The position numbers were made by a program, and so were the translations under genes. This document shows, piece after piece, positions 47,278 through 55,701 of a stretch of DNA of 64,000 nucleotides. The DNA lies in contig NZ_CP106883.1 of assembly GCF_023634805.2 (NCBI RefSeq), positions 62,001 to 126,000 of the forward strand, in the 5' to 3' direction. Position 1 is the first letter of the stretch. Each line of letters opens with the position of its first letter. The notes under the pieces were generated by a model that worked only from the letters and a program-made list of their open reading frames with translations, was not told the origin of the DNA and ran no database searches. This DNA comes from Comamonas endophytica (lineage in GTDB: Bacteria; Pseudomonadota; Gammaproteobacteria; Burkholderiales; Burkholderiaceae_C).

Positions 47278-47289
47278 TTATGTGGAATG
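47277..47289. repeat. Left end inverted repeat of the ars transposon
   Basis: ATTATGTGGAATG matches the reverse complement of 55684-55696 (ATTACGTGGAATG) at 12 of 13 positions and lies exactly at the break in umuC. Confidence 0.75.
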
Positions 47290-47463
47290 CAATCATCCGT
47301 CAACCAGGTATCGTTTCAACATCATCGCGATAAGCTGTGCATATGAGACTCCACTTCCCCAAGAGTCGCAGAAGCCACGCTACGTTGTCATGGCAGTCGT
47401 GGAGAAATCGGGCGCCGCACGTTTTCCTCTGCCGCCGAATGCCCCCTCGTGACATCCATTCCG

Positions 47464-48663
47464 CTACAGGTTTGGCTTGTCTAGCTCAGTGACATGTTGC
47501 GGAAGCCGTATACCGTGAAGCGCCCAGAAGGCGGTGATTCCCAGCAATGAGGACAGCCACAGTGCGCCTGAACCCCACTGGGAGACGGCCATGCCAAAGA
47601 GAAACGGCGAGCCGGCTTGCAGAATGCGCGCCGGTACCATCAGCCAGCCCTGGCGCAGACCATAGCCGTGCGCGCCGAACACCTTGAGCGGCAGCGTACC
47701 CACGGCGATGGTCAGAATGCCGTTTCCCAACCCATGCAGAATGGCAAAAACGCTGGCCGCAGGGGCACCAACCAAACCCAGACAGATGGCGGCCAAGGGA
47801 TGGGCAAGGATCGCCAGTTTTGCGCACAGCAGCGGATGTGCATTCCTGAGGAACCCGTACTCTGCCAAGCGTCCCGCCACCTGTGCAGGCCCCACAAGCG
47901 CTGCGGCCCAGATAGCTACCGCCACCGTTCCGCCTGTAATTTGCAGCAACTGTGGCAGGTGGGCAGCCATGGCGGTGCTGATAAACCATGAGACAGCGAA
48001 CACATAGGCCATTAGACACACGGTGCGCCTGCGGAACTGCACTTCCTCGCTTGCGTCCTGCATTCCTTCTTGTCTGCGGTCGCTTGACCCCTCCTCGGCC
48101 GCTTTTGCAGCCCGTGGCAACAACATGTTGAGCGGGAGCCCCAGCAACAGGTGCAGCGCCGCCCAGGTCAAACAGGCCTCGCGCCATCCAAACTCATGCG
48201 CAAGATGGCTGGATAGTGGCCACCCGATGGTGCTGGCGAATCCTGCAAACAGCGTGATGCCAGTGATGGCGGGTCGGGCGTCCTGACCATAGAGGCGCAC
48301 AACCGTGGAAAACGCTGCCTCGTACAGGCCGCTGCCCATGGCAATACCCATGATGGCCCAGGCCAGAAACACCTCGCTGGACTGGGTGGCCTGACTCAGT
48401 ATCGCCAGTCCGGCAGCAAATACCAGGTTGCTTGCGATCAAAACCGGACGGCCACCGAAACAGTCGATGAGCCGACCGGCCACGGGCCCAGTGGCAGCTG
48501 AAACCAGCAGTGCCGCTGAGAACGCGGCGAACACTGTGGAGTACGCCATGCCAACGGCACGGCTGATTGATTCAGCCAGCACCGCGGGCAGGTAGTACGA
48601 CGATGCCCAGGACAGCGTTTGCGCCACACCCAGCATGACGGTGGTCTGTGTGCGGCGCTGCAT
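47464..48663 (-). CDS. MFS transporter of the arsenic operon
   Basis: Encodes 399 aa with twelve predicted TM helices in two halves separated by a basic loop (KAAEEGSSDRRQEGMQDASE). Motifs such as GPVAGRLIDCFGGRPVLIAS are major-facilitator loops. It ends the leftward ars operon. MFS exporters in ars operons may remove organic or phosphorylated arsenicals; I cannot tell the substrate, and the ArsJ partner GAPDH gene is absent. Confidence 0.85.
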   Translation of the reverse strand: MQRRTQTTVMLGVAQTLSWASSYYLPAVLAESISRAVGMAYSTVFAAFSAALLVSAATGPVAGRLIDCFGGRPVLIASNLVFAAGLAILSQATQSSEVFLAWAIMGIAMGSGLYEAAFSTVVRLYGQDARPAITGITLFAGFASTIGWPLSSHLAHEFGWREACLTWAALHLLLGLPLNMLLPRAAKAAEEGSSDRRQEGMQDASEEVQFRRRTVCLMAYVFAVSWFISTAMAAHLPQLLQITGGTVAVAIWAAALVGPAQVAGRLAEYGFLRNAHPLLCAKLAILAHPLAAICLGLVGAPAASVFAILHGLGNGILTIAVGTLPLKVFGAHGYGLRQGWLMVPARILQAGSPFLFGMAVSQWGSGALWLSSLLGITAFWALHGIRLPQHVTELDKPNL

Positions 48664-48675
48664 CGTCGCGTCGCC

Positions 48676-49394
48676 TTAAATGCTGCGTTGGTTGACCCGC
48701 TGGGACAGCGCCTCGGCGCTTTCGCGCCGTTCGCTGTAGCGGTCCACCAGGTAGTCCGCGCAGTCGCGGGTCAGGATCGTGAACTTGATCAACTCCTCCA
48801 TCACATCAACCACCCGTTCGTAATATGAGGACGGCTTCATGCGACCTGCTTCGTCGAACTCTGCAAAGGCCTTGGCGACGGACGACTGGTTGGGGATGGT
48901 GAGCATGCGCATCCAGCGACCCAGCACGCGCATCTGGTTGACAGCATTGAAGGACTGCGAGCCCCCGGAGACCTGCATCACGGCCAGGGTCTTGCCCTGG
49001 GTCGGCCGTACGGCGCCCACGGCAAGGGGAATCCAGTCGATCTGGGCCTTCAGGATTCCGGTCATGGCCCCATGGCGCTCGGGTGAGGTCCAGACCATGC
49101 CTTCCGCCCATAGCGCCAACTCACGCAACTCCTGCACCTTAGGGTGGTTGTCCGGTGCATCGTCGGGCAGAGGCAGTCCGCGTGGGTCAAAATCCGCGGC
49201 TCGGCCCCCATTGCTCGCAGCAGCCGGGCTGCCTCCTCCGTCAACAGCCGGCTGTAAGAGCGCTCCCGGGCCGACCCATAGAGCAGCAAGATGCGAGGGG
49301 GATGTGCAGCGCGCTGCTGCGGCAGCAGCCGCGCCAGGTCTGGCACTTCGAACGATTGCATATCCAGGTTGGGGAGATCAGTGCTTTGCAACAC
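48676..49394 (-). pseudogene. arsH: arsH (NADPH-FMN organoarsenical oxidase) with one frameshift
   Basis: The N-terminal part, PRILLLYGSARERSYSRLLT, starts at a GTG (49394) inside the end of arsC. The C-terminal part holds ELALWAEGMVWTSPERHGAM, TGILKAQIDWIPLAVGAVRP and KTLAVMQVSGGSQSFNAVNQ, all classic ArsH. The two are in different frames. Adding one base at the A run at 49189-49192 (T run on the coding strand) restores DPRGLPLPDDAPDNHPKVQE. A single-base deletion in a homopolymer is therefore the only defect seen; a sequencing error is possible. Confidence 0.9.
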
Positions 49395-54594: not shown

Positions 54595-55628
54595 GCTGAG
54601 CCTCCCCGGAGTTGGTCCAGTCGTGCCTCATGGACCGCAGCCATGCTGCGGGTAAACCGGTCTGAGAGATCACGCGCGCTCAGATGAATGTAGAGCAAGG
54701 TCGATTGAATGCAGCGATGGCCGGCAAAACGGGCGATCTCCTGGATGTCCCAGCCAGCACGTGCCAGGTCCGTCAGGCAGAGGTGACGGAAGCTGTGGGT
54801 CGTCAGTGCGGGCACCCCGGCGTGCAACGCGAGCCTGTGTACTACTTTCGACCAAGTCCACTTGGTCAGGGGCGTCGCTCGATTGCGTGAGGACTCCGAT
54901 AGGAACAATGGACCTCGCGGGCTGCCCAAGCGACGACGTTCGGTAAGGTAGGCCACGTAGAGCTCTGCGCTCACCACCGAGTAGGGGACAATTCGCTCCT
55001 GCCGGGTCTTGGTCGTCTCGGCCCGAATGCGAAGCAGGCGTCTTGCCGGATCGATGTCTCCCGTGGCAAGCGAACACAGTTCCTCCCGACGCAGCGCACA
55101 GTCATACGCAAGGGCGAGCATCAAGCGGTTGCGGACTGGCTCGCTGCGCGCCGTGCACAGTAAAGCCTGCCAATCCGAATCGTCGGGAATCCAGGGAAGC
55201 CGCCGCTGAATGGGGATGAGGCCGCGTTGTCCGACACCGAACCCACCGGAAGCGGCTCCGCGTCGCCCGCGCGCGACAGGATTCGTTGTGCGCACACCCT
55301 CTTCGACCAAGTAGTCATAGAACAACCGGACAACGGTGAGCCGATGGCGGATGGAAGCGTTGGAAAGAGCGGAGACGGTGCTGGAAGGGACCTCCACGCC
55401 ACAGGAGCGCCCAGCCAGTTCGCGCACGTAAGCAGCGATCTGAGCGCTCCCAACACTTGTGACATTCAACTCCATCCGTCGACAGAAACCGAGGTAGTGA
55501 TCCAGCCCACGCGCGTAGGCGGCGACGGTATTGGGAGCTCTTAGCAGATCAACCTGCAAGGACACCCACGCGTACGCAAGGGCATCGCTGCAGAGGTTCG
55601 CCAACGCACGCCAAGGTTCTGTAGACAT
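54591..55628 (-). CDS. Tyrosine recombinase (TnpA of the Tn554 type)
   Basis: Encodes 345 aa. The SAM-like DNA-binding N-domain (NTVAAYARGLDHYLGFCRRM) is followed by catalytic residues: Arg in CALRREELCSL, His-x-x-Arg in LTTHSFRHLCLTDL, and the tyrosine end FAGHRCIQSTLLYIHL. First gene of the recombinase operon, 73 bp from the right end of the element. Confidence 0.9.
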   Translation of the reverse strand: MSTEPWRALANLCSDALAYAWVSLQVDLLRAPNTVAAYARGLDHYLGFCRRMELNVTSVGSAQIAAYVRELAGRSCGVEVPSSTVSALSNASIRHRLTVVRLFYDYLVEEGVRTTNPVARGRRGAASGGFGVGQRGLIPIQRRLPWIPDDSDWQALLCTARSEPVRNRLMLALAYDCALRREELCSLATGDIDPARRLLRIRAETTKTRQERIVPYSVVSAELYVAYLTERRRLGSPRGPLFLSESSRNRATPLTKWTWSKVVHRLALHAGVPALTTHSFRHLCLTDLARAGWDIQEIARFAGHRCIQSTLLYIHLSARDLSDRFTRSMAAVHEARLDQLRGGSA

Positions 55629-55683
55629 CGTGCCTCCTGGGGATTGCCTACGCTACTCCAGTTGGGCACGGCAGTCAGTCAGA

Positions 55684-55696
55684 CATTCCACGTAAT
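55684..55696. repeat. Right end inverted repeat of the ars transposon
   Basis: CATTCCACGTAAT, partner of 47277-47289, five bases inside the right break in umuC. Confidence 0.75.
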
Positions 55697-55701
55697 AGAT
55701 A

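What the first reader, a model, noticed from the sequence alone, without database searches (positions are those of the whole stretch)
47278..55701. Tyrosine-recombinase transposon uses plasmid umuC as its target
The 8.4-kb ars element splits umuC cleanly: joining 47277 to 55702 restores the conserved SDEAKALGIK frame. Tn554-type elements are site-specific, and a target in a conserved part of umuC, a gene common on plasmids and ICEs, would give such elements a mobile landing site. I do not know of a described family with this target.
Basis: partly seen in the sequence, partly recalled or inferred. Interest (0 to 1): 0.7.

Follow-up and report, generated by a model that had tools for sequence, protein, structure and literature searches.

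The report
Arsenic-resistance element that targets umuC
A mobile DNA element carrying arsenic-resistance genes sits at one exact point inside a plasmid's DNA-repair gene umuC, and relatives with other cargoes use that point or another about 100 bases further on; insertion into umuC was already known for other elements, but I found no description of this family and its two exact sites.

Summary
Aligned separately to an intact plasmid umuC (Comamonas antarctica), the window's two umuC pieces map to nt 1-128 and 129-1301 with no gap. The insert has inverted ends (11 of 12 bases alike) and two adjacent tyrosine recombinases, 345 and 750 aa.

Of 19 related loci checked, 16 abut umuC at the same base, two (L021, L022) do not, one did not match the end pattern. 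Two E. coli plasmids share the recombinase end at 99.5% while the adjoining umuC is 64% identical, so one element entered different umuC genes. Relatives with TnpB about 34% identical enter umuC some 33 codons further on: 26 of 31 loci. A six-base core differs between the two junctions, as reported for Tn554, SE and GInt elements.

The novelty claim fails in part: umuC/rulB is a published integration hotspot for integron-like elements (PMC4542609, shown by mating) and two-integrase units (PMC8547460, PMC10654056, PMC9134201). The element is Tn554-like, not Tn554: no TnpC, and umuC as target. I found no description of this clade or its two sites. Verdict: new variant of a known kind.

The parts
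46425..47147 (+). umuD-like ORF (UmuD domain in its second half)
   Evidence: NCBIfam NF007621 at residues 123-236
46696..46711 (+). perfect match to the LexA-box consensus (consensus recalled)
   Evidence: the only match of 10 without a mismatch; with one mismatch allowed the window has fewer matches (10) than shuffles (mean 20)
47150..47277 (+). umuC 5' piece, codons 1-42 and two bases of codon 43
47272..47277 (+). left six-base core AGACGA, from the host gene (vacant L114 has GGACGA)
47278..47289 (+). left terminal inverted repeat TTATGTGGAATG
   Evidence: same TTATGTGGAAT in L016, L018, L020, L025
47464..48663 (-). MFS transporter, ArsK-like (below the ArsK model's cut-off)
   Evidence: PF07690; NF033733 234 bits, cut-off 400
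48676..49394 (-). arsH, in two frames in this sequence
   Evidence: TIGR02690 and PF03358; one gap column here between the two overlapping readings of the contig
49378..49842 (-). arsC (glutaredoxin type)
   Evidence: TIGR00014
49835..51124 (-). arsB arsenite efflux
   Evidence: TIGR00935
51179..51766 (-). low-molecular-weight phosphatase-type arsenate reductase (below cut-off of arsC_pI258 model)
   Evidence: PF01451, TIGR02691 64.5 bits
51794..52117 (-). arsR regulator
   Evidence: NF033788
52342..54594 (-). TnpB, 750 aa tyrosine recombinase
   Evidence: PF00589; catalytic positions; 608 plasmid records with a match
54591..55628 (-). TnpA, 345 aa tyrosine recombinase, reading away from the right end
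   Evidence: PF00589, PF02899; catalytic positions
55684..55695 (+). right terminal inverted repeat CATTCCACGTAA
   Evidence: relatives
55696..55701 (+). right six-base core TAGATA, element-borne
   Evidence: right cores follow the recombinase type, not the host gene
55702..56878 (+). umuC 3' piece, from the last base of codon 43
   Evidence: PF00817, PF11799, PF13438

Best explanation
47278-55701 is a site-specific mobile element moved by a pair of tyrosine recombinases (TnpA 345 aa, TnpB 750 aa; Tn554-like, no TnpC found). Its attachment site is a fixed point in umuC at codons 41-43, in the stretch encoding the conserved S-x-E-A-K residues. SHOWN: exact boundaries, inverted ends, a vacant site, the same base used by relatives in different umuC genes, and six-base cores that at the left junction vary with the host gene and at the right with the recombinase type. 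INFERRED: the element leaves as a circle whose ends are joined around a six-base spacer; TnpA and TnpB bind the inverted ends and the two arms in umuC; strand exchange across the spacer leaves the host's six bases at the tnpA-distal end and the circle's six at the tnpA end. umuC is broken, and the element rides on whatever replicon carries umuDC. Related elements do the same after codon 76, with tnpA facing umuC's 5' piece.
For: Seamless mapping of both pieces on an intact umuC. Same base in 16 of 19 related loci checked. Recombinase end 99.5-99.6% identical in L118 and L119/L120 while adjoining umuC is 64.3%; window and L001 96.7% against 78.4%. Left cores vary with host, right cores with recombinase type. 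In the TnpA tree the window lies in a 13-row group (SH-aLRT 99): 10 at site 1, 2 elsewhere, 1 not assessable. Even sample of plasmid hits: 9 of 10 in umuC.
Against: L021 (67% identical TnpA) and L022 carry the end motif at other sequence. L098, L106 and L072 do so in the second group. Left ends were read in only five elements (window, L016, L018, L020, L025), and none was found for L001 in the stretches held. No circle, no movement in real time and no strand chemistry was observed; the tree is a quick one. The 19 loci are not a random sample: most were found because umuC or this recombinase was known to be there.
Confidence: 0.8

Rival explanations
1. One ancient insertion into umuC, inherited together with the gene; no site-specific targeting since.
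For: The clade is consistently found in umuC, which inheritance alone would also give; L119 and L120 are simple copies (99.9% and 100%), and L116 and L117 nearly so (99.5% and 95.8%).
Against: L118 against L119/L120 (99.5-99.6% recombinase, 64.3% umuC) and window against L001 (96.7% and 78.4%); opposite orientation at the same base in L049 and L056; a vacant umuC 86% identical to the window's.
Confidence: 0.04
2. Relaxed specificity: the recombinases accept many sites, and umuC looks special because it is common on plasmids and because I searched from it.
For: L021, L022, L098, L106 and L072 keep the terminal motif at other sequence. Actinobacterial, chloroflexotal and Bacteroidota relatives with at least 400 bp upstream showed no umuC within 400 bp of tnpA.
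Against: The same single base in 16 of 19 loci and another single base in 26 of 31 is tighter than gene abundance would give; the plasmid sample, drawn by recombinase and not by umuC, gave 9 of 10.
Confidence: 0.08
3. It is a member of the known rulB integron-like elements (ILE/GInt type) and nothing else.
For: Same gene, nearby position; tmexCD-toprJ units with two int genes are also reported in umuC (PMC8547460, PMC10654056, PMC9134201, passages).
Against: The pUM505 ILE has three recombinases of 385, 528 and 478 aa that do not resemble TnpA or TnpB by BLASTP at E 0.01 (the TnpA profile finds the 385-aa one weakly, 16.9 bits), and its cut lies after codon 34, nine codons upstream.
Confidence: 0.05

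Closest known systems
Tn554-related elements with one long and one short tyrosine recombinase (PMC3414803, passages seen; first author recalled as Van Houdt)
   Same: A recombinase of 611-828 aa beside one of about 350 aa; some sets have no TnpC partner; related pairs occur in Rhodococcus and Streptomyces, as in my tree.
   Different: Described mainly from Actinobacteria; 'umu', 'rulB' and 'target site' do not occur in the main text.
Tn554 (S. aureus pWBG14, L126; the record does not use the name, I recognise it by its gene content)
   Same: tnpA beside tnpB, TnpA homologous (25% over 320 aa, E 4e-21), six-base footprint as reported in PMC10214605 (passages).
   Different: It has TnpC (DUF6262); its TnpB is only weakly similar; its target (radC, recalled) is a different gene. 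No TnpC found in the window's element.
rulB integron-like elements, ILE (PMC4542609, parts 1-4 of 8 and discussion part 1 read); pUM505
   Same: Site-specific tyrosine-recombinase elements in the 5' part of a plasmid umuC homologue, with exchangeable cargo; movement shown by mating.
   Different: Three recombinases plus a tetR-like gene, no close sequence relation to TnpA or TnpB, and a cut nine codons upstream.
T3SE ILE of pDC3000A, as cited in PMC4542609
   Same: Two recombinases of 336 and 713 aa inside rulB; TnpA 44% and TnpB 34% identical; it is a member of my second group, at site 2.
   Different: Other site in umuC, other orientation, other cargo; described in print as integron-like.
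tmexCD-toprJ two-integrase units in umuC (PMC8547460, PMC10654056, PMC9134201; passages)
   Same: Two int genes, umuC named as integration hotspot on plasmids and ICEs.
   Different: Not compared here: whether their integrases belong to this lineage or to the ILE type was not tested.
SE and GInt elements (PMC10214605, PMC5385486; passages)
   Same: Ordinary plus large tyrosine recombinase (SE), fixed targets, six-base exchange at the junctions.
   Different: Four core genes (intA-tfp-intB-srap; ginABCD); here two recombinases and no such partner genes next to them.

Membership tests
Tn554 family | adjacent tnpA and tnpB tyrosine recombinases, homologous to Tn554's | tested here: met
   TnpA 25% over 320 aa, E 4e-21; TnpB weak: BLASTP E 6e-4 over 45 residues, profile 11.2 bits (Tn554 TnpB read only to its first stop, 519 aa)
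Tn554 family | tnpC | tested here: not met
   tblastn of TnpC against the element gave nothing at E 10; the 64-aa ORF after tnpB hits no Pfam family
Tn554 family | target in radC (recalled) | tested here: not met
   target is umuC; a JAB-domain gene lies upstream of tnpA in pWBG14
Tn554 family | no target duplication, six-base footprint | tested here: met
   by comparison of sequences only
Tn554-related long/short recombinase pairs (PMC3414803) | recombinase of 611-828 aa beside one of about 350 aa, TnpC optional | tested here: met
   750 and 345 aa; Rhodococcus and Streptomyces relatives fall in the same tree. Their identity with the paper's own protein families was not tested
ILE / GInt | three recombinase-type genes plus a fourth small gene | tested here: not met
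   two recombinases, next gene arsR
ILE | cut at the GAT of N-N-D in rulB | tested here: not met
   cut at codon 43, not codon 34
SE | intA-tfp-intB-srap order | tested here: not met
   tnpA and tnpB overlap by four bases, arsR follows
RIT | three overlapping recombinase genes | tested here: not met
   two recombinase genes
any of these | circle formation, strand bias, movement in vivo | not testable with these tools
   needs bench work or raw reads

The most novel reading that the evidence does not exclude
The first 230 bp or so of plasmid-borne umuC are a portable multi-site attachment platform. Two groups of Tn554-like recombinase pairs have settled on two fixed sites about 33 codons apart (S-x|E-A-K and S-N-Y-x-L|), the only distantly related ILE recombinases use a third, and elements stack: in L019, L020 and L074, and by umuC mapping also L070, a scrap of umuC of about 110 bp lies between two elements head to head. 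Because umuDC travels on conjugative plasmids, metal-resistance and anti-phage cargo loaded there moves without the element needing transfer genes of its own.
Probability: 0.55. Interest if true: 0.62.

Novelty: new variant of a known kind. Interest (0 to 1): 0.47.

Why it matters
It gives a base-exact attachment site, terminal repeats and a six-base core for a recombinase family that the plasmid records seen here annotate only as 'site-specific integrase' or 'tyrosine-type recombinase'. With these, such elements can be delimited automatically, including those with anti-phage or metal-resistance cargo on Enterobacterales plasmids. It also sorts scattered reports (rulB hotspot, effector ILEs) into recombinase lineages with distinct sites, and makes target choice by paired tyrosine recombinases testable, because related pairs differ in site.

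Tried and rejected
Second genomic copy: searches suggested two copies, but C3 overlaps itself by about 40 kb, so there is one; my first fixed-offset test gave false mismatches because of indels.

Genome surveys with the TnpA alignment gave few hits: order 2 of 399 (E up to 1e-40), class 1 of 369, phylum 3 of 398, family of G1095 12 of 392 (E up to 1e-30); the window's own genome is counted in the first three. The element is found mainly through plasmid records and contigs. The 14-base end pattern was taken from these very ends, so its two hits are not independent evidence. The pattern required umuC-like bases after the core, so that call selects for umuC; the count of 16 rests as well.

Rows dropped: TnpA pieces under 200 aa (L078, L081, L085, L086 and the second piece of L019), and L109 as a repeat of L105. 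L081, dropped for length, has umuC at site 1. For the tree, pieces under 240 aa also went, 92 rows to 88 (L077, L079, L080, L105). L073 was relabelled by hand from 'site1rev' to 'site2' because its broken umuC remnant gave two pieces. Loci fetched after the tree (L116-L125) are not in it. The tree is quick (SH-aLRT only), with long branches flagged for L019 and L082 among others. Some rows are near-copies: L101-L104 and L107 have identical TnpA; L091/L124, L108/L123 and L099/L102/L103 show the same umuC letters at the junction.

A resemblance of the element's right end (I-P-R-N codons) to umuC's own I-A-R codons was noticed and is too weak to claim. Whether the tmexCD-toprJ integrases belong here was left untested. 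Not-in-print statements rest on searches in an open-access library only.
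Full report
OBSERVATION. The window holds umuD, then the first 128 bases of umuC (47150-47277), an 8,424-bp insert (47278-55701) and the rest of umuC (55702-56878). Aligned separately to an intact umuC on a Comamonas antarctica plasmid (L114, fetched after the search), the left piece covers nt 1-128 (113/128 identical) and the right piece nt 129-1301 (1009/1173), so the insertion lost and duplicated nothing. The insert's ends are inverted repeats, TTATGTGGAATG and TTACGTGGAATG reading inward, 11 of 12 alike.

COPY NUMBER. The two recombinase copies that the own-genome search reports are one: contig C3 (131,045 bp) overlaps itself by about 40.18 kb with 0 mismatches and 16 gap columns, so it is best read as a circular plasmid of about 90.9 kb sequenced past its start. 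Both readings have the same junctions (no gap column within 50 bp). With the window's umuC 3' piece as query the genome gave no umuC match beyond this gene and a C-terminal remnant next to it.

CONTENT. Reading leftward from the right end: tnpA (345 aa), tnpB (750 aa, overlapping by four bases), arsR, a phosphatase-type arsenate reductase, arsB, arsC, arsH (in two frames here) and an ArsK-like MFS transporter. Both recombinases hit PF00589 and have the R, H-x-x-R, H, Y positions. A perfect match to the LexA-box consensus (recalled) lies at 46696-46711 ahead of the UmuD domain; one-mismatch matches elsewhere are no more common than chance.

RELATIVES. In 72,556 plasmid records TnpB has matches in 608 and covers at least 80% in 430; TnpA in 1,333 and 610, the weak ones in the even listing looking like ordinary tyrosine recombinases. 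A scan of genome contigs with the TnpA alignment A1 gave 67 loci from Pseudomonadota, Actinomycetota, Chloroflexota, Bacteroidota and others. In 5.8 billion proteins, 541 of 7,991 scored candidates matched TnpB at E up to 1e-20, the best at 95% and ten more at 67-80% identity over at least 96% of the query. I mapped umuC pieces next to tnpA by tblastn with an intact UmuC read from L073.

SITE 1. Elements of the window's kind have the right end ATTCC...TAA, then six bases, then umuC from the last base of the codon before Ala-Lys (Glu-Ala-Lys in the window). Of 19 loci given to, 14 printed umuC there; L016 and L018 read the same, which makes 16. L021 (a metagenome contig, TnpA 67% identical) and L022 (Paracoccus sediminis) have the end motif beside other sequence. 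L070 has a umuC piece beside tnpA but its end did not match my pattern. L024 starts at a contig end and could not be judged. L049 and L056 are at the same base in the opposite orientation. Left ends were read in L016, L018, L020 and L025 and start with the same TTATGTGGAAT. For L001 no umuC 5' piece was found in the stretches held.

THE SIX-BASE CORE. Left cores follow the host gene (AGACGA in the window; TGCCGA, CGCGCA, CAAAGC and AGCGGG in L016, L018, L020 and L025), and the vacant L114 has GGACGA there. Right cores follow the recombinase type (CAGCGA in Paracoccus types, CATATA/CATAGA/CTTATA in enterobacterial types, TAGATA/CAGATA in the window and C. antarctica, CAATGA in L089). This is the pattern expected if each insertion keeps the target's six bases at one end and brings the circle's six at the other, as described for SEs, with a six-base footprint also reported for Tn554-related elements and six-base staggered cuts for GInts (PMC10214605 and PMC5385486, passages).

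RECENT MOVEMENT. L118 and L119/L120 (E. coli plasmids) share 99.5-99.6% over the 1,080-bp recombinase end, but the 900 bp of adjoining umuC are 64.3% identical; window and C. antarctica share 96.7% against 78.4%. The element therefore entered different umuC genes at the same base. Neighbouring cargo differs: arsenic here; copper genes beside the C. antarctica copy, whose left end is unknown; an E1-E2-JAB gene with a WYL regulator in Serratia, annotated alike in E. coli and Klebsiella plasmids; an OLD/AriA-like ATPase in Pantoea.

AN EVEN SAMPLE. From the 'spread' listing of TnpB plasmid hits I took ten rows, roughly every fourth among those with good coverage. Nine lie in umuC: five at site 1, four at site 2. 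The tenth (L121, Acetobacter, short tnpA) does not. Three other rows of that listing had been fetched earlier: H183 Rhodococcus (L093, none), H193 and H197 (L092, L091, site 2); with them it is 11 of 13. Several of these plasmids are near relatives of one another.

SITE 2. Relatives with TnpB 34% and TnpA 43-44% identical enter umuC at S-N-[YF]-x-L|, about 33 codons downstream of site 1, with tnpA facing umuC's 5' piece: 26 of the 31 loci given. L098, L106 and L072 keep the motif elsewhere, L121 lacks it and L104 starts at a contig end. The core on the tnpA side is TAGTAA in 23 of the 26, TATTAA in two and AAGTTA in one; the first two put a stop codon at or just after the umuC fragment. In L019, L020 and L074 both sites show end motifs head to head about 110 bp apart; L070 has recombinases of both kinds around a umuC piece. 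L094 and L100 lie at 839 kb and 3.99 Mb of their contigs, so copies are not confined to plasmids.

TREE. In a quick TnpA tree (88 rows, SH-aLRT) the window falls in a 13-row group (99) of 10 site-1, 2 none and 1 not assessable; a 20-row group (98) has 17 site-2, 2 none and 1 not assessable; three methylotroph rows and L019, also at site 2 where assessable, lie outside it. L089 and the two inverted elements form a separate small group (87). The actinobacterial, chloroflexotal and Bacteroidota rows with at least 400 bp upstream showed no umuC within 400 bp of tnpA. So umuC targeting belongs to particular groups and is not general to the recombinase type.

WHAT IS KNOWN. PMC4542609 (Rhodes et al. 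2014; parts 1-4 of 8 and discussion part 1) showed active, site-specific entry of three-recombinase ILEs into rulB of pWW0 during matings and listed other umuC-type hotspots. In pUM505, cited there as an ILE, the cut is after the Asp of N-N-D (codon 34 in the window's numbering); its recombinases do not resemble TnpA or TnpB by BLASTP at E 0.01, though the TnpA profile finds the first weakly (16.9 bits), as it does Tn554's. The pDC3000A element, cited there as a complete T3SE ILE, is a second-group element at site 2. PMC8547460, PMC10654056 and PMC9134201 (passages) call umuC an integration hotspot for two-integrase tmexCD-toprJ units. PMC3414803 (passages) defines Tn554-related pairs of long and short recombinases, mostly actinobacterial, some without TnpC. 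Against Tn554 itself (pWBG14, L126): TnpA 25% over 320 aa, E 4e-21; TnpB weak; TnpC not found in the window's element. I found no account of this proteobacterial group, of site 1 as defined here, or of two sites for two related groups (searches; most subscription journals are missing).

JUDGEMENT. The finding is real and the target claim stands for this group. The claim of an undescribed target does not, because umuC/rulB is a known hotspot. What remains new is the lineage, its exact sites, the core pattern and the stacking of two groups on one gene. Mechanism beyond the sequence pattern is inference.

Noticed in passing
57144-57491: A second umuC C-terminal remnant (59% identical, with a stop inside) follows the window's umuC, perhaps left by an earlier umuC gene.
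   Followed up: partly
whole window (contig C3): C3 overlaps itself by about 40 kb; it is best read as a circular plasmid of about 90.9 kb, so the genome record holds redundant sequence.
   Followed up: yes
48676-49394: arsH is in two frames; the two overlapping readings of the contig differ here by one gap column, so a sequencing error is possible.
   Followed up: partly
L073 13311-14576, L075 3393-4658, L076 4138-4869: In three methylotroph loci a umuC gene with its 5' end directly follows tnpB (intact in L073 and L075, cut by the contig end in L076); in L073 and L076 a umuC 5' remnant lies before tnpA. The element may bring a replacement 5' part that rebuilds the target.
   Followed up: partly
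L018 11771-16173; L020 12215-14008; L091 12174-17297: umuC-inserted relatives carry PADLOC-recognised anti-phage genes: E1-E2-JAB, OLD/AriA-like, type II restriction-modification with PDC-S06.
   Followed up: partly
L001 / NZ_CP054842.1: The C. antarctica plasmid holds a vacant umuDC and, about 110 kb away, the 97%-identical recombinases beside another umuC 3' piece; its ars genes (75-84% identical to the window's) lie beyond that piece, on the side away from the recombinases.
   Followed up: partly
NC_016138.1 (pUM505): pUM505 carries an ILE in umuC and, elsewhere (80265-82380), a TnpB of the second group, 86.6% identical in DNA to that of L092.
   Followed up: no
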